Assembly (NCBI GenBank): GCA_903825285.1
Contig: CAIJZY010000017.1
Coordinates: 1-64,000, forward strand
Source: an uncultured Opitutia bacterium
GTDB taxonomy: Bacteria; Verrucomicrobiota; Verrucomicrobiia; Opitutales; Opitutaceae
DNA: 64,000 nt
Direction of reading: 5' to 3'
Shown here one piece after another: positions 29,593 through 63,437 of this stretch (position 1 is the stretch's first letter; each line of letters starts with the position of its first letter). Below the pieces are notes generated by a model. That model searched no databases, was not told where the DNA came from, and worked only from the letters and a program-made list of their open reading frames with translations. A program made the translations under genes and the position numbers.

Positions 29593-29707
29593 CTGGGAGG
29601 AGATGCTGCAGGTCCTAGCTGAGGTGTCAAAAAATCATCTAAGCGCCCCGCGCAGGCCAGCTAACCGATCCTAACCCCAGTCCCCTGGTCCCCAGTCTGG
29701 AGTCACC

Positions 29708-29744
29708 TTCGATGTTCGGCGTTGGGCGTTCGATGTTCGGCGTC
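29708..29744. repeat. Dispersed repeat of TTCGATGTTCGGCGT words, copy 1
   Basis: Two near-identical words, TTCGATGTTCGGCGT, lie in tandem separated by TGGGCG. The same block recurs in both orientations at 47144-47262. It lies upstream of rpsP. Confidence 0.75.
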
Positions 29745-29778
29745 CGCCTGGCTCCCGCCACCCCGGGGGAGTCGGGGC

Positions 29779-40168: not shown

Positions 40169-43100
40169 ATGAAATCCGGTCGCCTGCTCCTGTTCGGCCT
40201 GCTGGCGGCAATCCTCGCCGTGCTGCTGGCCGCCGGCGCTTCGCTGGATGCCCGCGTCCAGACCTGGGCGGCGCAGCGCTGGCTCGCCGGCCGGCCCGCG
40301 CTGGGCCTCACGCTCGGGCGGCTCGACGCCGGCCTGCACCGCGTGCGGGTCGAGGATGCCCGCGTCATCCATGCCGGCGCCGTGCTCACGCTGCCCGCCG
40401 CGGAGGCCGAGCTGCCGGTCCTCGGCGCCGTCTGGCACCGGCAGTTCCTCATCCGCCGGCTCGTGGCCCGCGGCTGGACCCTCGACCTCACCGCCGCCCA
40501 TGCGGCCCCGGCCGCCGCCGTCCCGGCCCCGGCCGTATCCCGCGGATTCTCCCTGCTAACCACCGCCTATGCCGACGAGGGCGCCGCCCCGGTGGTGGCC
40601 GCCGCGGCCCCGGCGGTCTTCACCGGCATCTTCCATGCGCTGCGCCTGCCGGTGGACTGCTCCCTCGACGGGCTCGACCTCGCCGGCGAGGTGATCCTGC
40701 CGAAGGGGCCCGATCGCCCGGCCGCGCGCATCGCGATCACCTTCACCGGCGGCGGACTCGCCGCAGGCCGGCCGGGCCGGTTCGACTACACGGCGGTGGT
40801 GACCTTCGCCGGCGACGACGTGGCGGTCCGCGAGCTCACGGTGCACGGCACCCTCGGTGTCATCATGGACAGCCCGCGGTCCGTCTCCCGCTTCGTGGTC
40901 TCCACCCAGGCCAACGCCCTCGGGCCGAAGTTTCCCGGCGGCGTGCAGCTGGCCCTCGACGTTTCCGCCCAGCGTGCCGCGAACGGCGAGACGTACGCCG
41001 TGAGCGTCTCGTCCGGTGAGAAGCAGCTGGCCGCGCTCGAGACAGTCTATCCGGCGGGGGCGAGTCATCTCGCCGGCAACTGGCGCCTCGACATGCGCGA
41101 CACCGACCTGGCGCCGTTCGCCTTCGGCGAGGCGCTCCCGTCCTTCACCGCGGCGGGCGAGGGCCGGTTCGACCTCGACACCGGTTTTGCCGAGCTGCGG
41201 GCGAGCGGCCGGCTGAACGCGACGGTCGACCGGCTCAGCGTCATCCACGAGCAGCTCGCCGGCCTGAGCGCGGTGCACCTCACCGCCGACTTCGACTTTG
41301 CGCAGCGGGCCGGGGCCACGCGGGTGGACCGGCTCGATGTGACGGTGGAGGGCGCCCGGCCCGTGGCCACCGTGCAGGCGCTGCAGGCGTTTGAGTTCAA
41401 CCTCCGGACCGGCGAGCTCAATGTCGCCGACCCGGCGAAGGATCTCCTCGGCGTCCGGCTCCAGGGCCTGCCGCTCGCGTGGGTGGGCCTGCCCCTCGCG
41501 CAGCTGGGCTACCGCGCGCGCGGCGACGACCTGCAGGGCGAGTTCGCGGCCAGCGCGCGCAACGGCGGCTTCGCCCTCCGGCCCAAGTCGCCGCTGACCC
41601 TCACGCACTTTGACCTGGCGCGGGCCGATGGCCGGCGGCTGCTGTCCGGGGTGGACGTTTCCCTCGCGCTGGCGGCCGACTACACGCCGCAGGGCTGGCA
41701 GCTCGAGCTCCGGCCCTTCACGCTCCGCCGGCAGGGCGTCACCCTGCTCACGGTCGAGGGCCGGGTGGGGCAGCTCGCGGGCGCGCACCAGCCGGTCAAG
41801 GCCGCCGGCAAGTGGAGCGGCCAGCTGCCGGCGCTCTGCGCGCAGCCCGGCGTGCTTGGCGCCGACATGTTCACGAGCGGCGCGGCCCAGGGCGATTTCG
41901 CGGCCAATCTGGACGACAAGCGCGAGTTCCAGTTCCGCGCGGCTCTATCCAATCTCGCCGCGCCCTCCGCTCCGGCGCTCCCCGCGGTCAGCGTCGACCT
42001 CCGCCTGGACCTCGCGCGCGACGGCGCAGTGACCTTCAGCGTGCCCGTCCGGCTCGAGCGCGATGGCCGGCAGTCCGACCTTACCGTCGCCGGCACCGCC
42101 CGCCCGCAGGCGGCGGGCTGGGCGCTCGACGCCCGGGTCACGGGCGATTTCCTCGCGATCGAGGACGCGCAGCTGCTCGCCGCGCCGTTCTCCGGTTTGG
42201 TCGCGCCGGCCGAGCCGGCCTTGATCCTGCGCGGGCCGGCACCGGCGGCGCCCGCCTGGGGCGGCGTGTCGGGCCAGGTGGCGCTCGCGCTGCAGCGCGT
42301 GGCCTATCGCGGGCAGCTGCAGGTCACGGGCTTCACCGGGCGGCTGCTGCTCGATTCCGCCTCGCTCCAGCTGGTGGATGTCCACGCCGGCTTCGACGCC
42401 GACAGCGATGTCCGCCTCGCGGGCCGTGTGACCTATCAGGCCGGCCAGCCTCAGCCGTACGCGCTGGCGGCGGACTTCGCACTCCGCAATTTTGCCACGG
42501 CACCGGCCTTCCACGCCATTGATGCCACCAAGCCGCCCACCGTGGAGGCCCGCATCGATCTCACGAGCCGCCTCGTTGGCAACGGCGCCACGCTTGGGGA
42601 CTTGGCGGCCGGCACGCACGGGGACCTCGTCATCACGAGCAAGGGTGGAATCTTCCGCGGCCTGTCCGCCGACCTCACCGACCGGATCCAGAAGACCCAG
42701 TCGCGGGTGACCGCCATTGCCAGCTTCCTCGGCGTGGTGCCCGACGACTACGTGAACAAGACCCGCATCCTCGGCGACATCGCCCGGGCGCTCGCGGAGA
42801 TTCCCTTTGACCAGCTGAGCGTGACGGCGACGCGCGACGCGGCCCTGAACCTGCAGCTGAAGGATTTCTCGCTGATCTCCCCCGAGATCCGCCTCGGCGG
42901 GGTGGGGGCCGTGCGGCAGATCGACGGCGTGCCGCTGCTCGCGCAGCCGCTCGACATGCAGCTGAGCCTGGCCGCGCGCGGGAAGCTGGGCGACCTGATC
43001 CGGCGCGCCGGCCTGCTGGAGAAGACCCAGGACAGTCTCGGCTATGCGCCGTTCGCCGTGCCGCTCCACATCGGCGGCACCCTCGGCAATCCCGACACGA

Positions 43101-43174
43101 ACGATATCCGCACCGCGCTGCTCAACTCCGCCCTCGAGCGGAGCGGCCTGCTCGACAGCCTGATGGGGAAATAG
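40169..43174 (+). CDS. AsmA-like envelope protein
   Basis: 1001 residues. One N-terminal membrane anchor (LLLFGLLAAILAVLLAAGASL) is followed by a long, strand-rich periplasmic body with short repeats of the type LTLGRLDAGLHRVRVEDARV, and a C-terminal segment (LQLKDFSLISPEIRLGGVGAV, DMQLSLAARGKLGDL) of the AsmA/TamB-like superfamily. Such proteins form hydrophobic grooves that move phospholipids to the outer membrane, or assist secretion. It lies 104 bases after the efflux operon in the same direction; the gap contains a GC-rich inverted repeat that may end the efflux transcript. Confidence 0.7.
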   Translation: MKSGRLLLFGLLAAILAVLLAAGASLDARVQTWAAQRWLAGRPALGLTLGRLDAGLHRVRVEDARVIHAGAVLTLPAAEAELPVLGAVWHRQFLIRRLVARGWTLDLTAAHAAPAAAVPAPAVSRGFSLLTTAYADEGAAPVVAAAAPAVFTGIFHALRLPVDCSLDGLDLAGEVILPKGPDRPAARIAITFTGGGLAAGRPGRFDYTAVVTFAGDDVAVRELTVHGTLGVIMDSPRSVSRFVVSTQANALGPKFPGGVQLALDVSAQRAANGETYAVSVSSGEKQLAALETVYPAGASHLAGNWRLDMRDTDLAPFAFGEALPSFTAAGEGRFDLDTGFAELRASGRLNATVDRLSVIHEQLAGLSAVHLTADFDFAQRAGATRVDRLDVTVEGARPVATVQALQAFEFNLRTGELNVADPAKDLLGVRLQGLPLAWVGLPLAQLGYRARGDDLQGEFAASARNGGFALRPKSPLTLTHFDLARADGRRLLSGVDVSLALAADYTPQGWQLELRPFTLRRQGVTLLTVEGRVGQLAGAHQPVKAAGKWSGQLPALCAQPGVLGADMFTSGAAQGDFAANLDDKREFQFRAALSNLAAPSAPALPAVSVDLRLDLARDGAVTFSVPVRLERDGRQSDLTVAGTARPQAAGWALDARVTGDFLAIEDAQLLAAPFSGLVAPAEPALILRGPAPAAPAWGGVSGQVALALQRVAYRGQLQVTGFTGRLLLDSASLQLVDVHAGFDADSDVRLAGRVTYQAGQPQPYALAADFALRNFATAPAFHAIDATKPPTVEARIDLTSRLVGNGATLGDLAAGTHGDLVITSKGGIFRGLSADLTDRIQKTQSRVTAIASFLGVVPDDYVNKTRILGDIARALAEIPFDQLSVTATRDAALNLQLKDFSLISPEIRLGGVGAVRQIDGVPLLAQPLDMQLSLAARGKLGDLIRRAGLLEKTQDSLGYAPFAVPLHIGGTLGNPDTNDIRTALLNSALERSGLLDSLMGK

Positions 43175-45139: not shown

Positions 45140-46035
45140 GTCCCGCCGCCAAAGCCGGGGCCGCCCTGCCGGGGCTCATCGACCGTCGCACGCCGCGCTG
45201 GCGCGCGTGGCTGCTGCTCCTCCCCATGGTGACATGGCTGGTGCTTTTTGTCGTCGCCCCGACCGCGATCCTCCTCGTCTACAGCTTCTGCGAGCGCGAC
45301 GAGGTCGGGCGCGTGCTGTTCACCTTCACGCTGGATAACTACCGGCGGGTGTTCGACCCGGTCTACCTGTGGATCTTCGCGCGGTCCATCTACTACGCCG
45401 GCCTGACCACCGTCATCTGCATCGTCGCCGGCTACCCGGTGGCCTACTGCATCGGCCGGGCCCGCGAGGAGTGGCGGCAGCGGCTGCTCCTGCTGGTCAT
45501 GGTGCCGTTCTGGACGAGCTTCCTCATCCGCACCTACGCGTGGATCACGATCCTGAAGCAGGAGGGCCTGCTCAACGGGTTCCTGCGGCTGTTCTCGCCG
45601 GGGACGGCGGGCCTGGACCTGCTCTACACGCCGACCGCGGTGGTCATCGGCCTGGTCTACGCCTACCTGCCGTTCATGATCCTCCCAATCTACGGCAGCG
45701 TGGAGAAGCTCGACGGTGCGCTCATCGAGGCCGCCTACGACCTCGGCGCGGGCCCGCTCCGGGTGTTCTCGTCCGTCATCATCCCGCTCACGCTCCCGGG
45801 CGTTGCCGCCGGCACGCTGCTGGTGTTCGTGCCCGCCGTCGGCATGTTCGCCATCACCGACCTCATGGGCGGCGCCCGCGTGCCGCTCATCGGCAACGTG
45901 ATCCAGAACCAGTTCATGCAGGCGCGCGACTGGCCGTTTGGAGCGGCGCTCGGCGCCGTCTTCATGGGGCTCTTCGCCGCGACCTACTGGGTCATGCTGC
46001 GGCTCGGCGCCCAGGAGGAGGACTCCGTCGCATGA
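45136..46035 (+). CDS. potB: Spermidine/putrescine ABC transporter permease, PotB-like
   Basis: 299 residues from the GTG at 45136 that overlaps the potD stop; the frame is open further upstream only as a shadow of potD. Six membrane helices starting [26 protein letters not shown]. The EAA loop is [26 protein letters not shown]. PotB-type signatures include [24 protein letters not shown] and [20 protein letters not shown]. Its stop overlaps the ATG of potA. Confidence 0.92.
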
Positions 46036-47132
46036 ACCCCATGGTCGACCTGCGCGGCGTCACCAAGCGCTTCGGCGCCTTCACCGCGGTCAACGACGTC
46101 ACCCTGCCGATCGCCAGCGGCGAATTCCTCACGCTGCTCGGGCCCTCCGGCTGCGGCAAGACGACGCTGCTCCGGCTGATGGCGGGCTTCGACACGCCGA
46201 CCGAGGGCTCGGTGTGGATCGGCGGCGAGGACGTCACCCACCGGCCGCCGTACCGCCGGCCGGTGAACCAGGTCTTCCAGAGCTACGCGCTCTTCCCGCA
46301 TCTCACCGTGATGGAGAACGTCGGCTTCGGCCTGCGCATGCAGCGGGTCGGGGCCGCCGAGGCCGCGGAGCGGGTGCACGAGGCGTTGGCGCTGGTCTCG
46401 CTCACGGGACTCGATGCCCGCCGGCCGCACCAGCTCTCGGGCGGCCAGCGGCAGCGCGTCGCGCTGGCGCGGGCCCTGGTGTGCCGCCCCAAGGTGCTGC
46501 TGCTCGACGAGCCGCTCTCGGCCCTCGACGCCAAGCTGCGCCGTTCCATGCAGCTGGAGCTGAAGCGGCTCCAGCGGCAGCTGGGCATCACCTTTGTCTT
46601 TGTCACCCACGACCAGGAGGAGGCGCTGACGATGAGCGACCGCATCGCCATCGTGAACGCCGGCCGGATCGAGCAGCTCGGCACCGCGCACGAGATCTAC
46701 CACCGTCCGGCCACGCGCTTCGCGGCCGACTTCGTCGGCCAGGCCAACCTGCTCGAGGCGCGGCTGCTGCTGCAGGACGCGGACACCGTGCAGGTCTCCG
46801 TGACCGGCGGCCTGGAGCTGAGCCTGCCGCTCGCCGCCTGGCCCGCGGGCGCCACCACCGCGCTGCTGGCCATGCGGCCGGAGAAGGTTCACGTCTCCCG
46901 CGCCCGCGCGCCGGCGGACTTTCCGGCGGCGGCGACCAACATCTTCGAGGCCCGCATCGAGGAGGAGATCTTCCAGGGCGCCACGGACCACCTGGTGCTT
47001 GTGACCGCCGCCGGCACGCGCCTGGCCGTGGTGGTGGCGAACGAGAGCGCCTACGGCGAGATCTTCCACGCCGGCGACCGGGTGTTCTGCGCGCTGCACG
47101 CGGACGATTTGGTGGTCGTGCGGGCGGAGTAG
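46032..47132 (+). CDS. potA: Spermidine/putrescine ABC transporter ATPase, PotA-like
   Basis: 366 residues. Walker [11 protein letters not shown]-loop region [15 protein letters not shown], signature [15 protein letters not shown], Walker [16 protein letters not shown] and H-loop [11 protein letters not shown] are all intact. The C-terminal TOBE domain ([11 protein letters not shown] ... [13 protein letters not shown]) is the regulatory part of PotA/MalK-type ATPases. It powers the PotB-PotC channel. It is last in the four-gene operon; the downstream gap carries an inverted repeat that may end the transcript. Confidence 0.93.
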
Positions 47133-47143
47133 GGCCTTTGCCG

Positions 47144-47262
47144 GACGAACGCCGAACATCGAACGCCCAACGTCGAACGCCGGAGGTTATTTGCTGCGGC
47201 GCGAAGCGCGCTAGATTCCGGTGCGACGTTGGGCGTTCGATGTTCGGCGTCGGGCGTTCGAT
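47144..47262. repeat. Dispersed repeat of TTCGATGTTCGGCGT words, copies 2 and 3, inverted
   Basis: The block at 47144-47183 is the reverse complement of the family seen at 29708, and 47224-47262 is a direct copy, so the two form a large hairpin around a 40-base loop. It lies between potA and the ATPase gene and separates the two transcription units. Confidence 0.78.
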
Positions 47263-47318: not shown

Positions 47319-48314
47319 GTGATCGCGTCGGTCGATTTCAAGAACTTCAAGGCGCTGCGCGCGACCGCGCTCCAGCTGGCCCCGTTCAACCTGATCATCG
47401 GCGCCAACGGCAGCGGCAAGACGAGCCTGATCCAGGCGGTGGAGCGGCTGCACGCGCTCGCGCGGCTGCCGCTGGCCACGCCCGGCCCGGCCCGCCGCGC
47501 CGGCGGCCCGCGGATCTCGTTCCGGTTCAATTCGCCGTTCGCGGCGGTCGAGGCCCGCCTCGAGTGCGTCTCCGAGGCCAGCTGCGACCTGCTCCAGATC
47601 CGGCCCGCCCACGCGCCGGAATGGCCGGCGCTCCAGGCCCAGCTCGGCCGGATCCGCTCCTACCAGCTGGACTACGGCGCCATGACCGCACCGGCCGCGC
47701 CTGGCGCCAGTCCCGATGCCCCGCTTTCGCCCAGCGGCGCGAACCTCGCGGCGGTGCTGGCCGCGTGGCGGGACCGTCATCCGGCCGAGTTCGCGGCGCT
47801 CGTCGCGGAAGTGCTGCGTGTGCTGCCGGAGTATTCGGGACTCGAACTGGTGCGCGGCCCCGCCGGGATTGTGACTCTCGGCCTGCGGCTCGGCCCGGGC
47901 GGCGACCTGGTCACGGCCGACAACCTGTCGCAGGGCACGCTGGCGCTGCTGGCCATCCTCGCGCTCGCCCACGATCCGGCGCCCCCCGCGGTCCTGTGCA
48001 TCGAGGAGATCGACCGCGGTGTTCATCCGCGCCGGCTGCGCGAGGTGCGCGACGCGTTCTACCGTCTGAGCCACCCGTCCGCGTCCGGGCTGAAACGGCC
48101 GGCGGTGCAGGTGATCGCGACAACGCATTCCCCGTACTTGCTCGACCTTTTCCGCGACCATCCGGAGGAGATCGTGATCGCCCAGAAGCAGGGCCGGGCC
48201 GCGCGGTTCGAGCGGCTGGCGGACCGGGCCGACCTCGCCGAGCTGCTCTCGGAGGGCTCCCTCGGCGACATGTGGTACAGCGGCATCCTCGGCGGCGTGC
48301 CGGACGAATCATGA
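47319..48314 (+). CDS. ABC-type AAA ATPase of the OLD/AAA_21 kind
   Basis: 331 residues from a GTG start (ASVDFKNFKALRATALQL). Walker A GANGSGKT at 28-35; an ABC-like signature DNLSQGTLALLAILALA at about 225; Walker B VLCIEEIDRG with the catalytic Glu; and H-loop ATTHSPYLLDLF. The insert between Walker A and the signature is short, with no coiled coil, so it is not an SMC or RecF. This is the arrangement of ATPases that pair with TOPRIM nucleases in OLD-like, Gabija-like and PARIS-like systems. Its stop overlaps the start of a TOPRIM-like gene, so the two are co-translated. Confidence 0.82.
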   Translation: MIASVDFKNFKALRATALQLAPFNLIIGANGSGKTSLIQAVERLHALARLPLATPGPARRAGGPRISFRFNSPFAAVEARLECVSEASCDLLQIRPAHAPEWPALQAQLGRIRSYQLDYGAMTAPAAPGASPDAPLSPSGANLAAVLAAWRDRHPAEFAALVAEVLRVLPEYSGLELVRGPAGIVTLGLRLGPGGDLVTADNLSQGTLALLAILALAHDPAPPAVLCIEEIDRGVHPRRLREVRDAFYRLSHPSASGLKRPAVQVIATTHSPYLLDLFRDHPEEIVIAQKQGRAARFERLADRADLAELLSEGSLGDMWYSGILGGVPDES

Positions 48315-48964
48315 AGGTCGCCCTGCTGAGCGAGTCGCCCGCCGACGAGGCCGTCCTGCGGGAGCTGGTCGCGGCGGTGCTGGGCGGCTCCCCGGCGTGG
48401 TCGGCGGCGGGCCTGCGTGCCCGCGGCTGGCCGAGCGTGGTCCAGGTGCTGCCGGCCGTGATCCGGCACCTGCATTTCAACACCGACACGGACACGCTGG
48501 TGGTCACGGCCGACGCGGATGACTCGGTGGTGCACACGGCCGCGCACGAGGCGCCCGGATATTTCCATCCGCAGTGCCGGCTGTGCCAGCTGCGGGCGGT
48601 GTTCCGGCGGACCACGCGCAAGCTTCCGCCGGCGCGCGGCCGCAACCGCGTGCTGCGCGGCGTGGGCGTGGCCGTGCCCGCGCTGGAGGCCTGGCTGCTC
48701 TGCGGCCGCGACGCCACGGTGGGCGAGTCCGCGTGGATCGAGGGCCAGTCCGCCGGCCGCGCGCCGTACACGCGGGCCGAGCTGAAGTGGCGCGTCTACG
48801 GCACGGACCGCCCGAGCCTGCCGTATGAAATCCGCCGGGCGGTGGAGGAGATCCGCCGGCACGGCCGCGACACCCGCCGGCTCGAGCATGATTTTCCCGG
48901 CTTTGGCGTCCTGGCGCGCGACCTGCGCGAGGACCAGGCGATGCTGCACGGCCATCCCCCCTGA
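48311..48964 (+). CDS. TOPRIM-like protein coupled to the ATPase (DUF4276-like)
   Basis: 217 residues from the ATG overlapping the ATPase stop. The N-terminal half has a TOPRIM-like pattern: a first strand ending in Glu8 (VALLSESPADEAVL), and LVVTADADDSVV with Asp68-x-Asp70. Later VGVAVPALEAWLL resembles the EAWLL block of DUF4276 proteins, often found beside AAA ATPases. A CRLC pair and basic residues (RRTTRKLPPARGRNR) lie between. This makes a metal-dependent nuclease or nucleotide-processing role plausible, but neither the fold nor activity is proved. No phage gene or other defence gene is adjacent. Confidence 0.55.
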   Translation: MKVALLSESPADEAVLRELVAAVLGGSPAWSAAGLRARGWPSVVQVLPAVIRHLHFNTDTDTLVVTADADDSVVHTAAHEAPGYFHPQCRLCQLRAVFRRTTRKLPPARGRNRVLRGVGVAVPALEAWLLCGRDATVGESAWIEGQSAGRAPYTRAELKWRVYGTDRPSLPYEIRRAVEEIRRHGRDTRRLEHDFPGFGVLARDLREDQAMLHGHPP

Positions 48965-49034: not shown

Positions 49035-51269
49035 ATGTTACCCCCCGGCTTCCGCCGCCGTTCCTACGTCCCGCGCTTCATCGAGATGATCGCTACCGCG
49101 GTCGCGGGCTTGCTGTACCGGGTGCGCTCCGCCGGCACCGCGCACCTCCCGGCGACGGGCGGAGTGCTGCTGATTGCCAACCACCTCTCGTACATTGACC
49201 CGGTCATGCTCCAGCTTGCGTGCCCGCGGCCGATCCGGTTCCTCGGCTACCAGGGCCTGCGGGACAATCCCTTCTTCGACCTGGTCTTCCGGCTGAGCGG
49301 CTGCATCCCGATCTCGCGGACGAATGCGACCGACGGCATGCGGAAAGTCATCCGCGCCCTGCAGGCCGGCGAGGTCGTGGCGATGTTCCCGGAGGGCCAC
49401 ATCTCCCGCACCGGCCAGCTCATGACGATCATGCGGGGCTTCGAGGTCGCCGCGCGCCGGGCGGGCGTGCCGGTGGTGCCGGCCTACATCGACGGCGTCT
49501 GGGGCTCCGTGTTCTCCTTCGCCGACAACAAGTACCTCTGGAAGTCGCCCCGGCTCATGCCGACCCCGGTGTTCGTCCAGTTTGGCGCGCCGATGCCTGC
49601 CGGCCAGGCCGAGCCGGGATTCGCGCGCAAGGTGCTCCTCGACCTGGGGGCGCTGGCGTTCGACGAGCGGCCGGTGCTGAAGCGGCACCTGGGACGCGAA
49701 TGCGTGCGCTGCCTGGCACGCCGGCCGTGGCACGTTGAGATCGTGGACCGCACCGCCGAGCGCCGGCCGGTGACCGCGGCCCAGCTGCTCGCGACCTCCG
49801 CGGCCTTTTCGCGCCACGTCCGCCGCACCATCCCCGAGAAGCGGGTGGGCATCGTCCTGCCACCTGGCGCGGGCGCCTTCATCGCCAACCTCGGCGTCCT
49901 TTGCGCGGGCAAGATCCCCGTGAACCTCAACTTCACCGCCGGCAAATCCGCGCTCGAGGCCAGCATGAAACTGGGCGGCGTGACCACGGTCATTTCCGCC
50001 GAGGCTGTCCGGCAGAAGGTCCCGGCCTTCCCCTGGCCGGAGCGAACGCTCGACCTGCGGGCCGAGATCGCCGCGATGGGCGGCAAGCGCGCCATCCTGC
50101 CCTGGCTGGCCGCGGCCTGGCTGCTGCCCAACCAGTGGGTCGCCAACCTGCTCGGCCTCCCGCATGTCGGCGACCGCGAGGAGGCGGGTCTGCTGTTCAC
50201 CAGCGGCAGCTCCGGTGAACCGAAGGGCGTTGCGCTCTCGCACCGCAACATCCTCGCGAACTGTTCACAGATCTCGTCGCTCTCGATTTTGCCGCAGAGC
50301 TCCTCGCTCCTCGGCTGCCTGCCGCTGTTCCACAGCATGGGCTTCACCGTCACGCTGTGGTACCCGATCATCCGCGGCTGCACCGTCGTGACCGTCCCGA
50401 GCCCGCTCGACACGCGCAAGATCGTGGACGCCATCCGCGACGAGCAGGTGACCGTCCTCCTCGGCGCCCCGACCTTCATCCGTCCCATCCTGCGCAAGGC
50501 CCAGCCGAGCGAGCTGCGCTCACTGCACCTGGTCGTCACCGGCGCCGAGAAGCTGCCGGACGACCTCTACAAGGCGTTCCTCGAGACCTTTCACATCGAG
50601 ATCCTGCAAGGCTACGGGCTCACCGAGACCACCCCGGCCAGCAACATCAACCAGCCGCATCCACCCATCACCACCGAGACGGCCGAGCCGCAGGTGGGCA
50701 AGAAGGCCGGCTCCACGGGACGGCTCCTGCCGGGCATGACGGTGCGCATCGTCAGCCCGGAGACCGGCGAGGAGGTGCCGCTGGGCGACCAGGGCATCGT
50801 GTGGTTCAAGGGCGCGAATGTGTTCAGCGGCTACCTCGACGACCCGCAGAAGACGTCGGCCGCGTTCCGCGACGGCTGGTTTGTCACCGGTGACCTCGGC
50901 CGGCTGGACGAGGAGGGTTTCCTGTTCATCGAGGGACGCCTCTCACGGTTCTCCAAGATCGGCGCCGAGATGATCCCGCACGGCACCATCGAGCAGAAGA
51001 TCGCGGAGAGCTTCGGCCTGGACCAGGGCGAGGGCCCGGCCATTGCCGTCATGGGCGTCCCCGACAAGGTCAAGGGCGAGGCGCTGGTGCTGCTGACGAC
51101 GCTGCCCATCACCTCTGACGAACTTCGGGACAAGCTCCTCGGCGCGGGCTTCACCAATCTCTGGGTGCCAAAGATCATCTACCGCGTGGACCAGATCCCT
51201 GTGTTGGGCACCGGGAAGCTCGACCTCAAGCGCTGCCGTGACCTCGCGCTCGAGGCGGTGGCGGAGTAG
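49035..51269 (+). CDS. Fused 1-acyl-glycerol-phosphate acyltransferase / acyl-ACP synthetase (Aas-like)
   Basis: 744 residues. Residues about 15-210 form a PlsC acyltransferase with the catalytic NHLSYID (His50, Asp55) and the FPEGHISRTG block at 117-126. Residues about 250-744 form an AMP-binding synthetase with LLFTSGSSGEPKGVALSHRN near 385-405, GYGLTETTPA, FVTGDLGRLDEEGF and the C-terminal GKLDLKRCRDLA (Lys needed for adenylation). E. coli Aas has the same order plus a transporter-like part missing here. It would recycle lysophospholipids and exogenous fatty acids at the inner membrane. Probably starts a transcript with the GH2 gene 18 bases on. Confidence 0.9.
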   Translation: MLPPGFRRRSYVPRFIEMIATAVAGLLYRVRSAGTAHLPATGGVLLIANHLSYIDPVMLQLACPRPIRFLGYQGLRDNPFFDLVFRLSGCIPISRTNATDGMRKVIRALQAGEVVAMFPEGHISRTGQLMTIMRGFEVAARRAGVPVVPAYIDGVWGSVFSFADNKYLWKSPRLMPTPVFVQFGAPMPAGQAEPGFARKVLLDLGALAFDERPVLKRHLGRECVRCLARRPWHVEIVDRTAERRPVTAAQLLATSAAFSRHVRRTIPEKRVGIVLPPGAGAFIANLGVLCAGKIPVNLNFTAGKSALEASMKLGGVTTVISAEAVRQKVPAFPWPERTLDLRAEIAAMGGKRAILPWLAAAWLLPNQWVANLLGLPHVGDREEAGLLFTSGSSGEPKGVALSHRNILANCSQISSLSILPQSSSLLGCLPLFHSMGFTVTLWYPIIRGCTVVTVPSPLDTRKIVDAIRDEQVTVLLGAPTFIRPILRKAQPSELRSLHLVVTGAEKLPDDLYKAFLETFHIEILQGYGLTETTPASNINQPHPPITTETAEPQVGKKAGSTGRLLPGMTVRIVSPETGEEVPLGDQGIVWFKGANVFSGYLDDPQKTSAAFRDGWFVTGDLGRLDEEGFLFIEGRLSRFSKIGAEMIPHGTIEQKIAESFGLDQGEGPAIAVMGVPDKVKGEALVLLTTLPITSDELRDKLLGAGFTNLWVPKIIYRVDQIPVLGTGKLDLKRCRDLALEAVAE

Positions 51270-59514: not shown

Positions 59515-59627
59515 ATCTCGAGGCGGGTGGGGCGGTGGAGGGGGTTGGGGCGGTTGGCGAGCGAAAAACAGGGCTCTCACTTTCCGTTTGCCCGCGCTCG
59601 CGCGGCCCGCTCACACTGCGTGCTTTC

Positions 59628-62600
59628 ATGTATCTCAAGGCGCTAAAACTGCACGGTTTCAAGTCCTTCGCCGATGCCACCACCCTCCGATTTGAACCCG
59701 GCGTGACCGCCGTCGTCGGCCCCAACGGCTGCGGCAAGTCGAACATCGCGGACGCCATCCGCTGGGTGCTCGGCGAGCAGAGCGCGAAGGCGCTGCGCGG
59801 CGGCAAGATGCAGGACGTGATCTTCGAGGGCGCCGACACGCGCAAGGCCTCGCAGCTGTGCGAGGTGTCGCTGCTCCTGACCGAGTGCGAGAAGCAGCTG
59901 GGCAGCGAGTTTCACGAGATCGAGATCACCCGCCGCGTGCACCGTGACGGCCAGAGCGAGTACGCCTTCAACGGCCAGACCTGCCGGCTGAAGGACATCC
60001 AGAAGCTTTTCATGGACACCGGCGTCGGCCGGACCAGCTACTCGATCATGGCGCAGGGCCAGATCGACCAGATCCTGTCGTCCAAGCCCGAGGAGCGCCG
60101 CGCCGTGTTCGAGGAGGCCGCGGGCATCACCAAGTACAAGTCCGCCCGCCGCGAGGCCCTGAACAAGCTTGCGCTGACCGAGCAGAACCTGGCACGCGTC
60201 GCGGACGTCGTGGCCGAGGTCACCCGCCAGATCGGCAGCCTTCGCCGCCAGGCCGCGAAGGCCATGCGCTTCAAGCGGCTCAGCTTCCGCCTCCGCCACC
60301 TCAGCCTCGCCTGGAGCAGTCGCCAGCACGCGCAGCTGACCGCGGCGCTGATCGATTTGGAAACCAAGGTCGCGGCGCTGCGCGCCGAGGCCGACACCCG
60401 CCGCACGGGGCTGGAGGCGCGGCAGATCGAGCTGGAAACCAAGAAGTCGGGCCGCAGCCGGCTCAACCAGCGCGTCCAGGACGCCCAGCAGGCGGTGTTC
60501 GACCTCCGCTCCCAGAAGGAGGCGGCGGAGAACCAGGCCAATCTCGCGCAGATCCGGCGCACCGGGCTCGAGGACCGGCTCGGCTCCTCCCGCGACAATC
60601 TCGGGGAAATCGAGATGCAGCTCCGCGAGGTGTCCGCGCAGGTGGACACCGGGGCGCAGGACAAGCAGATGCAGCTGGGCCTCCTCGGCAGCAGCGACGC
60701 GGTCTTCCAGCAGCGCAACCGCGAGCTCGGCATCGCCGAGGGCGAGCTGAGCCGGCTCGAGCAGGAGCTGCAGCAGGCGAAGTTCGAGCTGCTCCAGCTC
60801 GAGAGCACCGTCGCCCGCCTCCGCACCGACTGTTCCGGCTACGAGGTGGACCAGAAGACCAGCGCGCACCGGCACGATGCCGTGGCGCAGGAGATCGCCC
60901 AGGTGCGCGAGCAGCACGCCGCCGCCGCCGCGACCGCCACCGAGCTCGGCGCGCGCGTGGAAGCGGCCCTGGCCGAGAAGTCGCGCACGCACAACGAGGC
61001 GACCGCGGCCCAGCAGGCCATCACCGACCTCACCCGCGAGTTCCGCGACGCGCAGCGCAAGCTGCAGGACATCGACCGCCAGCTGGCGCAGCGCACGGCG
61101 CGGCTCCGGCTGCTCCAGCAGCTGCAGGAGAAGTGGGAAGGCTTCGGCGAGGGCGCCAAGGCCGTCCTGCAGGGCCGGCTCGACGCCGCGCTCGCCGGCG
61201 CGAAGGTCACCCCCATCACCCACGGGCTCGAGCTCCGGCCGGAGTTCGGCAAGGCCGTCGAGGCGATCCTTGGCGCCGCGGCCGAGGCCATCAGCGTCAG
61301 CGACCTCGCCACCGCCCAGCGCATCCTCGCCCAGCTCGAGCAGGAGCAGATCGGCTCCGCCGTGCTGCGGATTGCGGACTGCGGCTTCCGGGGCGGCGAC
61401 CGCACCGACCTGCCCGCTGGGCTCGTGCCGGCGCTGTCGGCGCTGCGCGACGTGGACGCGGGCCATCCCGCGGCCGGCGTGCTCGGCGAGTGCTTCATTG
61501 CCGACGACCTCGGGACGTTCCTGCAGTTCTGGCAGGCGAACCCCGGCTTCAGCTTCCTCGCCGTCGCGACCCGCAAGGGCGACCTGGTGGACCGGCGCGG
61601 CCTGGTCTACGGCGGCCACCACAGCGCGCGGAAATCCTCGAACAGCATTGTCCAGCGCGAGATTGACCTGCGCGAGACGGCGCGGGGCCAGGCCGACGAC
61701 CAGCGCCTCCATGACGAGCAGAAGGCCGTAATTGACGGCCTGGGCACCAAGCTGGCCACGGCCGAGCAGGCCCTGGAGCAGCGTCGCGCCGAGGTGCTGG
61801 CGGTGACGCAGACCGTCGCCGCGGCGCAGGCCGAGCACCGCAACGCGCAGCGCGCGCAGGAGGACGTCGGCAACCGGCTCCGCCGGATGGAGGCCGAGCT
61901 GGTTTCACTCGAGCAGACCCGCAATGAATCGCACGCCCGCTGGGAAAAGGCGCAGGCCGGCCTCACGCAGGCCACCACCGCCGCCGAGGCGCAGCGCGGC
62001 CGGATCCAGCAGCTGGAGACCCGCCTGACGGAAATCCGCACCGACCGGGACGTGAAGCGCGAGTCGCTCGCGCAGGCGCGCCTGGAGCTGGCGGAGCGCC
62101 GCCAGAAGGTCGAGGTCCTCGACCGCGGCCTGACGGAGATGGAGAAGCGCCGGCTGCAGCTCGACGACCTGCTCGTCCAGCGCCAGCAGGAGATCGAGAC
62201 CTGGACCACGCAGATCGCCGACCTCGAGCGCGAGGCCGCGGCGCAGCGTGCCCGGGGCGCCCAGATCGGCGACACGCTCGGCGTGGCGCAGGAGCAGGTG
62301 GAGCAGGCGCGGGTCGAGCTGCTCGGCGTCGAGCAGGAGATCTCCGCCCTCGAGTCCGCGCAGAGCTCGCTGCACCAGCAGTCCGAGGCCGCGCACGACG
62401 AATTGAGCGTCCACGAGGTGAAGCTCGCCGAGACCCGCCAGCGCGCGCTGTTCCTGGCCGAGGAGGTCACGCGCGAGTTCCAGTCCGACATCGCCGCCCT
62501 CGACTGGAAGCAGCTGCTGTGGCACGCCGACGACGAGCCCGAGGGCGTGAAGCCGCTCGACCTCGACGAGGAGGAGGACGAGTCGGCGCCGAAATCGGCG

Positions 62601-63437
62601 GAGGCCGGGGCGCCGCCCGAGGCGACCGCCGAGGCCAAGCCGAAGCGCCGCAGGAAATCCAAGGAGAAGGGCGAGGCGACGGAGGCCGACCTGGCCGCGC
62701 TGGACGCCACGAACTGGGACGAGGTCAAGGCGGAGGCCGACGCGCTCCGCGCGCGCCTGAACAACATGGGCGCGGTGAACCTCGTGGCCATCGAGGAGTA
62801 TGCCGAGCTCAAGCAGCGGCACGACTTCCTCACGGCCCAGTGCAACGACCTGACGACCGCGAAGGCGGAGCTGCTCAAGGCGATCGAGGAGATCAACCTC
62901 ACGTCGCAGCAGCAGTTCGAGGTGACCTTCCAGCAGATCCAGAAGAACTTCGCGTACACCTTCGAGACCCTCTTCGGCGGCGGCCGGGCGGCGCTCGAGC
63001 TCATCGTCGCCGAGGACATCCTGGAGAGCGGCATCGAGATCGTCGCGCAGCCCCCCGGCACGAAGCTCAAGAGCATCACGCTGCTCTCCGGCGGCCAGAA
63101 GACCCTCACGGCCGTGGCGCTGCTGTTCGCGCTCTACATGGTCAAGCCCTCGCCGTTCTGCTTGCTCGACGAGCTGGACGCGCCGCTGGACGAGTCGAAC
63201 ATCGGCCGCTTCACGGACCTCCTCCGGAAGTTCGTCAGCGAGTCCCAGTTCATCATCATCACGCACAACAAGCGCACCGTCTCGGCGGCCAGCGCGATCT
63301 ATGGCGTGACGATGGAGGAGCGCGGCGTCTCGAAGACCGTCTCGATGCGCTTCAACCACGAGCGCGGCGAGGCCGAGGCGGCCCACGCCCCGAACCTCGC
63401 GGAGTCGGTCGCCGCGGCTAAGCCCGCGGCGGTCTAG
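59628..63437 (+). CDS. smc: Chromosome segregation ATPase SMC
   Basis: 1269 residues from the ATG at 59628 (MYLKALKLHGFKSFADAT), the canonical start; the frame is open upstream without protein-like sequence. Walker A GPNGCGKSN lies in AVVGPNGCGKSNIADAIRW, followed by MAQGQIDQILSSKPEERRA. Long coiled coils flank a hinge near residues 500-660. The C-terminal head has the LLSGGQKTLTAVALLFALY signature and Walker B FCLLDELDAPLDESN. A highly charged segment of about 65 residues (Asp/Glu-rich then Lys/Arg-rich, about 968-1035) sits in the second coiled-coil arm. It condenses the chromosome with ScpA and ScpB, which are not here. Confidence 0.96.
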   Translation: MYLKALKLHGFKSFADATTLRFEPGVTAVVGPNGCGKSNIADAIRWVLGEQSAKALRGGKMQDVIFEGADTRKASQLCEVSLLLTECEKQLGSEFHEIEITRRVHRDGQSEYAFNGQTCRLKDIQKLFMDTGVGRTSYSIMAQGQIDQILSSKPEERRAVFEEAAGITKYKSARREALNKLALTEQNLARVADVVAEVTRQIGSLRRQAAKAMRFKRLSFRLRHLSLAWSSRQHAQLTAALIDLETKVAALRAEADTRRTGLEARQIELETKKSGRSRLNQRVQDAQQAVFDLRSQKEAAENQANLAQIRRTGLEDRLGSSRDNLGEIEMQLREVSAQVDTGAQDKQMQLGLLGSSDAVFQQRNRELGIAEGELSRLEQELQQAKFELLQLESTVARLRTDCSGYEVDQKTSAHRHDAVAQEIAQVREQHAAAAATATELGARVEAALAEKSRTHNEATAAQQAITDLTREFRDAQRKLQDIDRQLAQRTARLRLLQQLQEKWEGFGEGAKAVLQGRLDAALAGAKVTPITHGLELRPEFGKAVEAILGAAAEAISVSDLATAQRILAQLEQEQIGSAVLRIADCGFRGGDRTDLPAGLVPALSALRDVDAGHPAAGVLGECFIADDLGTFLQFWQANPGFSFLAVATRKGDLVDRRGLVYGGHHSARKSSNSIVQREIDLRETARGQADDQRLHDEQKAVIDGLGTKLATAEQALEQRRAEVLAVTQTVAAAQAEHRNAQRAQEDVGNRLRRMEAELVSLEQTRNESHARWEKAQAGLTQATTAAEAQRGRIQQLETRLTEIRTDRDVKRESLAQARLELAERRQKVEVLDRGLTEMEKRRLQLDDLLVQRQQEIETWTTQIADLEREAAAQRARGAQIGDTLGVAQEQVEQARVELLGVEQEISALESAQSSLHQQSEAAHDELSVHEVKLAETRQRALFLAEEVTREFQSDIAALDWKQLLWHADDEPEGVKPLDLDEEEDESAPKSAEAGAPPEATAEAKPKRRRKSKEKGEATEADLAALDATNWDEVKAEADALRARLNNMGAVNLVAIEEYAELKQRHDFLTAQCNDLTTAKAELLKAIEEINLTSQQQFEVTFQQIQKNFAYTFETLFGGGRAALELIVAEDILESGIEIVAQPPGTKLKSITLLSGGQKTLTAVALLFALYMVKPSPFCLLDELDAPLDESNIGRFTDLLRKFVSESQFIIITHNKRTVSAASAIYGVTMEERGVSKTVSMRFNHERGEAEAAHAPNLAESVAAAKPAAV

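What the first reader, a model, noticed from the sequence alone, without database searches (positions are those of the whole stretch)
47319..48964. Translationally coupled ABC-type ATPase and TOPRIM-like protein: candidate undescribed two-gene system
The ATPase has all OLD/AAA_21 elements (Walker A at 28-35, LSQG-type signature, EE Walker B, H-loop), and its stop overlaps the start of a 217-residue protein with a TOPRIM-like Glu8 ... Asp68-x-Asp70 pattern and a DUF4276-like EAWLL block. ATPase-TOPRIM pairs include the OLD family, Gabija and PARIS defence systems. The pair is isolated by a large inverted repeat upstream and has no metabolic neighbours that explain it. Differences from known systems (short ATPase insert, CRLC pair, DUF4276-like rather than DUF4435-like partner) leave room for a separate type. 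Defence is inference, not shown.
Basis: partly seen in the sequence, partly recalled or inferred. Interest (0 to 1): 0.65.

Follow-up and report, generated by a model that had tools for sequence, protein, structure and literature searches.

The report
Inherited ATPase–nuclease pair of Opitutaceae
Two overlapping genes encode an ATP-driven switch protein and a probable metal-dependent nuclease that resemble anti-virus systems, but here they appear to have been passed down in largely one chromosomal place within a single family of bacteria, which suggests that an immune-type enzyme was recruited for a stable cellular job.

Summary
In detail: a 331-aa OLD/AAA_21-type ATPase (47319-48314) whose stop overlaps (ATGA) the start of a 217-aa protein (48311-48964) with an ordered Toprim-type active site, invariant in 48 aligned homologues. 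The hint of a defence cassette is not what the distribution shows. The second protein is in 26 of 34 other same-family genomes and 0 of 238 other genomes of the order, and was not found in viral contigs, plasmids or phage records. The genes overlap in 39 of 53 loci and the same lipid gene follows in 48 of 54. Trees of both largely follow that neighbour's. Presence/absence is most simply read as one early gain and several losses. Nearest known kinds: HEC-01 and OLD nucleases; an invariant His/Cys cluster is absent from eight HEC-01B relatives. I read it as an ATP-gated Toprim nuclease that became a resident, dispensable chromosomal gene pair, comparable to archaeal Cran1; a resident anti-phage role is not excluded. 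Structure search did not confirm the Toprim fold.

The parts
47319..48314 (+). ATPase gene (331 aa, GTG start), OLD/HEC-01A/SMC-like ABC ATPase
   Evidence: Pfam AAA_21 2.8e-30; PADLOC best HEC-01A 1.1e-38 (unspecific); AF2 pLDDT 91.7; Foldseek retron PtuA complex 1.1e-11, Rad50 4.2e-10
47400..47423 (+). Walker A GANGSGKT (residues 28-35)
   Evidence: sequence; G28 and G31-K34 invariant in 39 sequences
47922..47939 (+). ABC signature NLSQGT (202-207)
   Evidence: sequence; Q205 and G206 invariant
47991..48014 (+). Walker B VLCIEEID (225-232)
   Evidence: E229, E230, D232 invariant
48120..48128 (+). H-loop TTH (268-270)
   Evidence: T268 invariant, H270 in at least 90% of 39; L046 and L076 have other letters there
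48311..48314 (+). ATGA start/stop overlap of the two genes
   Evidence: overlap in 39 of 53 homologous loci
48311..48964 (+). 217-aa Toprim-like protein
   Evidence: AF2 pLDDT 87.2; HEC-01B model PDLC04202 matched by 27 of 48 members at E<=1, best 8.2e-6
48332..48349 (+). E8-x3-D12-E13, putative metal ligands after strand 1
   Evidence: invariant in 48 of 48; compare E400/E404 of Bp OLD (PMC6755086, passages)
48512..48520 (+). D68-x-D70, Toprim-type DxD at the end of the second long strand
   Evidence: invariant in 48 of 48; model
48533..48586 (+). H75-x3-H79-x6-H86-x2-C89-x2-C92, putative zinc site
   Evidence: invariant in 48 of 48; not seen in 8 HEC-01B proteins; metal binding is inference
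48686..48688 (+). E126 of the EAW block
   Evidence: invariant; position fits E508 of Bp OLD by order only
48785..48787 (+). K159, candidate catalytic lysine
   Evidence: invariant; position fits K562 of Bp OLD by order only
49035..51269 (+). Downstream neighbour: acyltransferase / AMP-binding protein (744 aa), the most stable syntenic marker
   Evidence: Pfam; downstream in 48 of 54 loci
40169..43174 (+). Upstream neighbour: 1001-aa protein (called asmA in my scripts by recall; no Pfam hit at E<=0.001)
   Evidence: it or potA is upstream in 25 of 53 loci
47149..47250 (.). Dispersed inverted-repeat element, not part of the system

Best explanation
The two genes encode a two-protein, ATP-gated nuclease of the OLD/HEC-01 kind. 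The ATPase dimerises on ATP through its Walker A, signature, Walker B and H-loop parts and binds DNA ends, junctions or another nucleic-acid structure. This licenses or positions the Toprim-like subunit, which nicks or trims by two-metal catalysis using E8/D12, D68/D70, E126 and K159; an extra His/Cys metal site after the DxD motif shapes substrate or partner binding. It was gained once, early in the Opitutaceae, and became a resident chromosomal gene pair. The most likely job is maintenance of the cell's own DNA (repair, or replication/segregation stress), comparable to archaeal Cran1, rather than mobile anti-phage defence. Shown: anatomy, conservation, linkage, restriction to the family in the collections searched, constraint. 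Inferred: fold of the second protein, nuclease activity, complex formation, zinc, single gain, cellular role.
For: Toprim-type residues and the His/Cys cluster invariant in 48 of 48; ATPase motifs; ATPase model resembles retron PtuA and Rad50 heads. The nearest outside pair also has a short ATPase (hhalign E 1e-33) next to a Toprim-like partner that aligns over residues 3-176 (E 4.4e-5, probability 69). Same-family genomes: second protein in 26 of 34 others, ATPase in 68 of 100; other genomes of the order 0 of 238. The scan of one genome per species for 84,980 species gave 54 loci: 51 titled Opitutaceae-like or Verrucomicrobia(ta), one titled only 'bacterium' (L058), two titled Akkermansia muciniphila whose lipid gene groups with the others. 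No match in viral contigs, plasmids, phages. Tree agreement: 19 of 26 supported ATPase splits recur in the partner's tree and 20 of 26 in the neighbour's. dN/dS of the second protein 0.023-0.192, below the neighbour's in 10 of 12 pairs, one of them by 0.001. Presence clusters on the tree: 8 changes against a shuffled mean of 12.7, 0 of 500 as low. Contrast: HEC-01B PDLC04202 is in 11 of 240 genomes of the phylum, none of the 11 from this family. No defence-specific neighbour among ten window genes. Precedent: Cran1, a vertically inherited OLD enzyme with a cell-cycle role (PMC12796447: outline/abstract, section 7, passages).
Against: The pair is dispensable: 3 of 3 other genomes of its own genus lack the ATPase with the neighbours still in place, and 32 of 100 family genomes lack it at E<=1e-30 (some are incomplete). 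No neighbour links it to DNA repair. The ATPase evolves faster than the lipid gene in 12 of 12 pairs (the pairs share loci and are not independent). Supported splits conflict in 4-8 cases by direction, and the comparison gene lies in the same block, so joint transfer of the block is not excluded. RecF and RecR are present elsewhere, so no known repair gap is filled. Foldseek gave no significant match for the second protein. The nearest named relatives are defence candidates.
Confidence: 0.48

Rival explanations
1. Resident anti-phage system: a split OLD/HEC-01-like abortive or DNA-degrading nuclease that stays in one chromosomal place and is inherited vertically, lost when the cost exceeds the benefit.
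For: PADLOC best model for the ATPase HEC-01A, 1.1e-38; HEC-01B PDLC04202 for 27 of 48 partners at E<=1, best 8.2e-6; repeated absence at an otherwise intact place; faster-evolving ATPase; ATPase model closest to retron PtuA effectors.
Against: No mobile copy found, one family, mostly one place, no defence-specific neighbour among ten window genes, strong constraint on the partner. ATPase matches to PADLOC models are unspecific: the neighbouring transport ATPase PotA reaches 1.4e-32 for mad3.
Confidence: 0.35
2. Stress-activated RNA (for example tRNA) nuclease: the ATPase senses a cellular cue and releases the Toprim-like subunit, which cleaves RNA, as AriB of PARIS is reported to do to tRNA.
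For: AriB is a Toprim nuclease that cleaves tRNA (title and start of the abstract of PMC12409363 in the listing); the viral model with the highest TM-score (query) among the 50 rows is an RloB-like protein (TM 0.41, E 0.054).
Against: No AriB model among the hits; the viral match is not significant; nothing in the context points to translation.
Confidence: 0.1
3. A diverged RecF-RecR-like loader: an SMC-like ATPase with a metal-site Toprim partner that loads a recombinase and is not a nuclease.
For: TIGR RecF partial match to the N terminus (33.4 bits); RecR also joins a metal site and a Toprim domain (recalled).
Against: RecF (309.7 bits) and RecR (206.2 bits) are present elsewhere in the genome; the pair's RecF score is far below the cut-off of 172; the full set of catalytic residues is kept.
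Confidence: 0.04

Closest known systems
HEC-01 (Hma-embedded candidate, PADLOC; the term is explained in a passage of PMC12988326)
   Same: Adjacent ATPase + Toprim-like protein; ATPase match 1.1e-38; partner matched by PDLC04202 in 27 of 48 members at E<=1 and by profile comparison over residues 1-133 (E 6e-5, probability 65)
   Different: Invariant His/Cys cluster absent from 8 HEC-01B proteins; ATPase 331 aa against HEC-01A models of 264-464 positions; mostly fixed place and one family, while PDLC04202 is in 11 of 240 genomes of the phylum
OLD nucleases, classes 1-3 (P2 Old, Gabija GajA, retron-Eco8)
   Same: ABC ATPase plus Toprim-type catalysis; residue order matches Bp OLD E400/E404, D455/D457, E508, K562 (PMC6755086, passages)
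   Different: Two separate proteins; no helicase or reverse transcriptase among the window neighbours examined
PARIS (AriA/AriB; proposed class 4 OLD)
   Same: ATPase and Toprim on separate genes (PMC10568477, passages)
   Different: Partner shows no AriB match
Cran1 (archaeal OLD clade U11)
   Same: Vertically inherited within one lineage, unlike mobile defence OLDs (PMC12796447, section 7)
   Different: Cran1 is one protein and could not be deleted; this pair is split and missing from some relatives
Pair in another family of the class (L202: 3406-4380 and 2733-3401, minus strand)
   Same: Short ATPase (325 aa, E 1e-33) next to a Toprim-like 223-aa protein (E 4.4e-5)
   Different: Partner seen in 2 of 335 genomes of the class, one genus; lacks the Cys pair

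Membership tests
OLD family classes 1-3 | ATPase and Toprim domains in one polypeptide | tested here: not met
   Two ORFs in the window and in 53 of 54 loci (L054 has the second only)
OLD family classes 1-3 | Toprim Glu, DxD, further metal ligands and lysine | tested here: met
   E8, D12, D68, D70, E126, K159 invariant; correspondence to Bp OLD by order only, with A124 where T506 would be
Toprim fold | Parallel sheet with Glu after strand 1 and DxD after a later strand; structural match | tested here: inconclusive
   Predicted order E2-7 H10-24 H43-57 E62-68 H90-102 E116-122 fits; Foldseek none at E<=0.001; VIA Z 8.2-8.4 to AGO MID domains and to PH0156 (165 residues, rmsd 4.9)
HEC-01 | HEC-01A ATPase | tested here: inconclusive
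   Best model, E 1.1e-38, but no curated cut-off and 127 families at E<=1; the transport ATPase PotA next door reaches 1.4e-32 for mad3
HEC-01 | HEC-01B partner | tested here: inconclusive
   Window protein E 0.018; 27 of 48 members at E<=1, best 8.2e-6; hhalign 6e-5, probability 65
HEC-01 | Embedded in Hma or another defence locus | tested here: not met
   Ten window neighbours in PADLOC: eight without a hit at E<=0.001, PotA by its ABC domain and a GH2 protein by its GH2 part; other loci only by clustering
DUF4276 (PF14103) | Match over the gathering score | tested here: not met
   Not among hits of 48 members nor in this genome; hhalign to 8 DUF4276 proteins 0.021 over 16 columns
PARIS | AriB partner | tested here: not met
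   No AriB model among hits
Gabija | GajB-type helicase next to the ATPase gene | tested here: not met
   Beyond the pair the next gene downstream is an acyltransferase/AMP-binding protein, upstream a transport ATPase
MADS (mad3/mad4) | NCBIfam MAD3 cut-off 420 bits | tested here: not met
   89.9 bits; mad4 matched by 6 of 48 partners, best 0.0063
RecF/RecR | Curated TIGRFAM cut-offs | tested here: not met
   33.4 bits against 172 for RecF; RecF and RecR over cut-off elsewhere
Cran1-type housekeeping OLD | Vertical inheritance in one lineage | tested here: met
   the comparison gene is a neighbour, not a species tree
Cran1-type housekeeping OLD | Essential gene | tested here: not met
   ATPase absent from 3 of 3 other same-genus genomes with neighbours in place

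The most novel reading that the evidence does not exclude
A bacterial two-protein ATPase/Toprim nuclease with an added metal site, derived from the immune OLD/HEC-01 stock, was taken over once by the ancestor of most Opitutaceae for upkeep of the host chromosome: a bacterial counterpart to archaeal Cran1, reached independently.
Probability: 0.38. Interest if true: 0.72.

Novelty: new variant of a known kind. Interest (0 to 1): 0.5.

Why it matters
ATPase-Toprim pairs are usually read as defence on sight. A family that is resident and inherited with its chromosome shows that the label needs a distribution test, and gives a bacterial case in which the passage of such an enzyme from immunity to cell service (or to a fixed, inborn immunity) can be tested in cultured relatives. 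The invariant His/Cys cluster gives a clear handle for mutants.

Tried and rejected
DUF4276 membership: rejected. Dedicated or mobile repeat upstream: rejected, dispersed repeat. RecF/RecR replacement: rejected. Mobility: no viral, plasmid or phage match (one search scanned with two short peptide patterns, 20 stretches matched and none was confirmed; searches used the window's second protein only). PADLOC hits of the ATPase as proof of defence: rejected as unspecific, since PotA next door reaches 1.4e-32 for mad3; because of this I lowered the HEC-01A row of the membership test to inconclusive and left the odds as they were. Fold search of the second protein: nothing at E<=0.001 in the PDB or the viral library; VIA-align gave AGO MID domains at Z 8.4 and PH0156 (2p62) at Z 8.2, which the tool warns may be a common arrangement; no row of those 50 is named as an OLD, RNase M5 or other Toprim protein. 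Sequence search of solved structures with the profile: none at E<=10. Link to the SMC gene downstream: within 20 kb in 4 of 16 stretches and in the window, so not general. Literature: no paper holds two or more of HEC-01, DUF4276 and anti-phage, nor DUF4276 with TOPRIM and ATPase, PADLOC with HEC-01, or Opitutaceae with TOPRIM; the library is open-access PMC only. Papers seen: PMC12796447 outline/abstract, section 7 and passages; PMC6755086, PMC10568477 and PMC12988326 passages; PMC12409363 listing only.

Rows dropped and overlaps: the alignment holds the window and 47 of 54 loci, that the window and 38 of 54. The trees hold 41 of 54 loci plus the window. One search examined 23 of the 32 family genomes without the ATPase and found the neighbour gene in 22; the tree used 14 of these 22 (the other eight are 33-48% identical, uncertain orthologues) and 44 of 54 loci with the pair plus the window; L054, which has the second gene but no ATPase, was counted as present. 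The empty places were read in 12 of the 23. Genomes overlap in part, and 6 of the 16 stretches share DNA with loci. In one search the potA query was translated in a wrong frame (11 stops), so its potA rows are not valid; the query was mended from the window and onward used that.

Full report
WHAT IS THERE. Two same-strand ORFs overlap by ATGA at 48311-48314. Its AlphaFold2 model (mean pLDDT 91.7) is closest to chains of retron PtuA complexes and to Rad50 heads (Foldseek 1.1e-11 and 4.2e-10). The second, 217 aa, matches no Pfam family. Across 48 aligned sequences E8, D12, E13, D68, D70, E126 and K159 do not vary. Neither do H75, H79, H86, C89 and C92, which I read as a probable zinc site (inference). 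Bp OLD uses E400/E404, D455/D457, T506/E508 and K562 (PMC6755086, passages); the order agrees, with invariant A124 where the threonine would be. Residues were matched by order, not by superposition.

FOLD OF THE SECOND PROTEIN. The model (mean pLDDT 87.2) runs strand 2-7, helix 10-24, helix 43-57, strand 62-68, helix 90-102, strand 116-122, with Glu8 after the first strand and the DxD at the end of the second long one, as expected of Toprim. Foldseek found nothing at E<=0.001 in the PDB or the viral library, and VIA-align gave only middling Z (8.4 and lower). The Toprim assignment therefore rests on residues, element order and distant similarity: the HEC-01B model PDLC04202 matches 27 of 48 members at E<=1, best 8.2e-6; hhalign against eight HEC-01B proteins gives E 6e-5, probability 65; and those eight align with eight DUF4276 proteins at 3.7e-7. 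These pairwise E-values are not corrected for a library search, and the profile of the second protein is shallow (Neff 1.8). Direct comparison with DUF4276 fails.

DISTRIBUTION. The second protein is in 26 of 34 other same-family genomes, one match each, at 62-74% identity, and in 0 of 238 other genomes of the order. Its profile finds 22 same-family genomes (own included) and one weak match (E 0.008, 35 columns) among 288 of the phylum. A scan of one genome per species for 84,980 species gave 54 loci: 51 titled Opitutaceae-like or Verrucomicrobia(ta), one only 'bacterium' (L058), two 'Akkermansia muciniphila' (L080, L084) whose lipid gene groups with the rest. That scan reaches close relatives only. 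The family name comes from such titles and from NCBI's placing of Ereboglobus and Lacunisphaera in Opitutaceae; a stretch of a coded same-family genome (G091) shares DNA with the Ereboglobus locus. The ATPase is in 68 of 100 family genomes (59 of 82 of good quality, 35 of 49 genera). ATPase scores break sharply: 19 family genomes at E<=2.8e-76, the other 29 of 48 hit genomes at 5.8e-35 or weaker, among 240. There is no match in viral contigs, plasmids or phages. The HEC-01B model PDLC04202, by contrast, is in 11 of 240 genomes of the phylum, none of this family.

PLACE AND LINKAGE. In 53 of 54 loci the ATPase lies just upstream on the same strand; 39 overlap (38 by four bases, one by one) and 14 have gaps of 1-148 bases. 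The acyltransferase/AMP-binding gene follows within 57-5,502 bases in 48 of 54; four of the six others have under 2 kb of downstream sequence, but L045 and L085 have 4.8 and 7.0 kb without it. In 16 stretches of 17-20 kb from coded genomes it follows in 15; 10 of the 16 share no sampled DNA with the loci, and of these 9 have it. Upstream, the 1001-aa protein or potA is found in 25 of 53 loci; elsewhere the upstream side varies. Window neighbours are transport, lipid and sugar genes. Of ten of them eight have no PADLOC hit at E<=0.001; PotA hits mad3 and others through its ABC domain, a GH2 protein hits a CARF-galactosidase model through its GH2 part. So the place is largely fixed and does not tell the function.

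EMPTY PLACES. All three other genomes of the window's genus lack the ATPase. In two of them the upstream 1001-aa gene runs straight into the lipid gene, and in the third potA does. On a tree of the lipid gene (45 with, 14 without) presence needs 8 changes (starred branches force at least 6) against 12.7 in shuffles, 0 of 500 as low; the rows nearest the midpoint root lack the pair. One early gain and several losses is the simplest reading, but change counts cannot tell gain from loss, the root is a midpoint, some of those rows are long branches that the program flags, and the sample is not even. So the pair is resident but dispensable.

INHERITANCE AND CONSTRAINT. Tree distances of ATPase, partner and lipid gene (42 rows) correlate: ATPase-partner r 0.69, ATPase-lipid 0.75, partner-lipid 0.71, each p 0.001, the floor of the test. 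Of 26 supported ATPase splits 19 recur in the partner's tree and 20 in the neighbour's; of 27 supported partner splits 16 and 18 recur in the ATPase's and the neighbour's; 4-8 supported splits conflict, by direction. The neighbour lies in the same block, so transfer of the whole block would look alike. dN/dS in 12 close pairs, which share loci: partner 0.023-0.192, ATPase 0.092-0.239, neighbour 0.057-0.235; the partner is below the neighbour in 10 of 12 (once by 0.001), the ATPase above it in 12 of 12.

READING. Nothing here looks like a mobile cassette. The anatomy says ATP-gated metal nuclease; the distribution says a gene pair kept with the chromosome. Cran1 shows that an OLD enzyme inherited with its lineage can serve the cell cycle (PMC12796447). 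I put a DNA-maintenance role at about one half and a resident anti-phage role at about one third. RecF and RecR exist elsewhere, so the pair does not replace them.

NOVELTY. Among families in the libraries searched it is closest to HEC-01, with a diverged partner, an added His/Cys site and a different mode of inheritance. The nearest outside pair found (L202) lies in another family of the same class and is rare, 2 of 335. I call it a new variant of a known kind. Searches for a description in print are listed under Tried and rejected.

Noticed in passing
window 47149-47250; 29706-29746: Dispersed heptad-like inverted repeat (CGAACGC CGAACAT ...): 81 motif hits in this 3.7-Mb genome against 0 for the reversed control pattern.
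   Followed up: partly
window 59535-63437: SMC-like gene about 11 kb downstream of the pair; also within 20 kb downstream in 4 of 16 stretches of other genomes, and in loci L037, L053, L067, L071.
   Followed up: partly
L054:4208-4831: Second gene present without a recognisable ATPase upstream.
   Followed up: partly
L204:5040-6893 (same place as L121): A relative in another lineage of the phylum whose Toprim-like gene appears spread over two frames next to an intact-looking ATPase, perhaps a decaying copy.
   Followed up: no
L080, L084: MAG records titled Akkermansia muciniphila whose lipid gene groups inside the Opitutaceae rows; probably mislabelled.
   Followed up: partly
L202:2733-4380: Sister-like ATPase/Toprim pair (325 + 223 aa) between dnaE-like and pyruvate-kinase-like genes (names by recall from the sequence); its partner protein is in two genomes of one genus.
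   Followed up: partly
window 46032-47129: PotA-like transport ATPase scores 1.4e-32 against the PADLOC mad3 model, a warning that ABC ATPase hits in that library are unspecific.
   Followed up: yes
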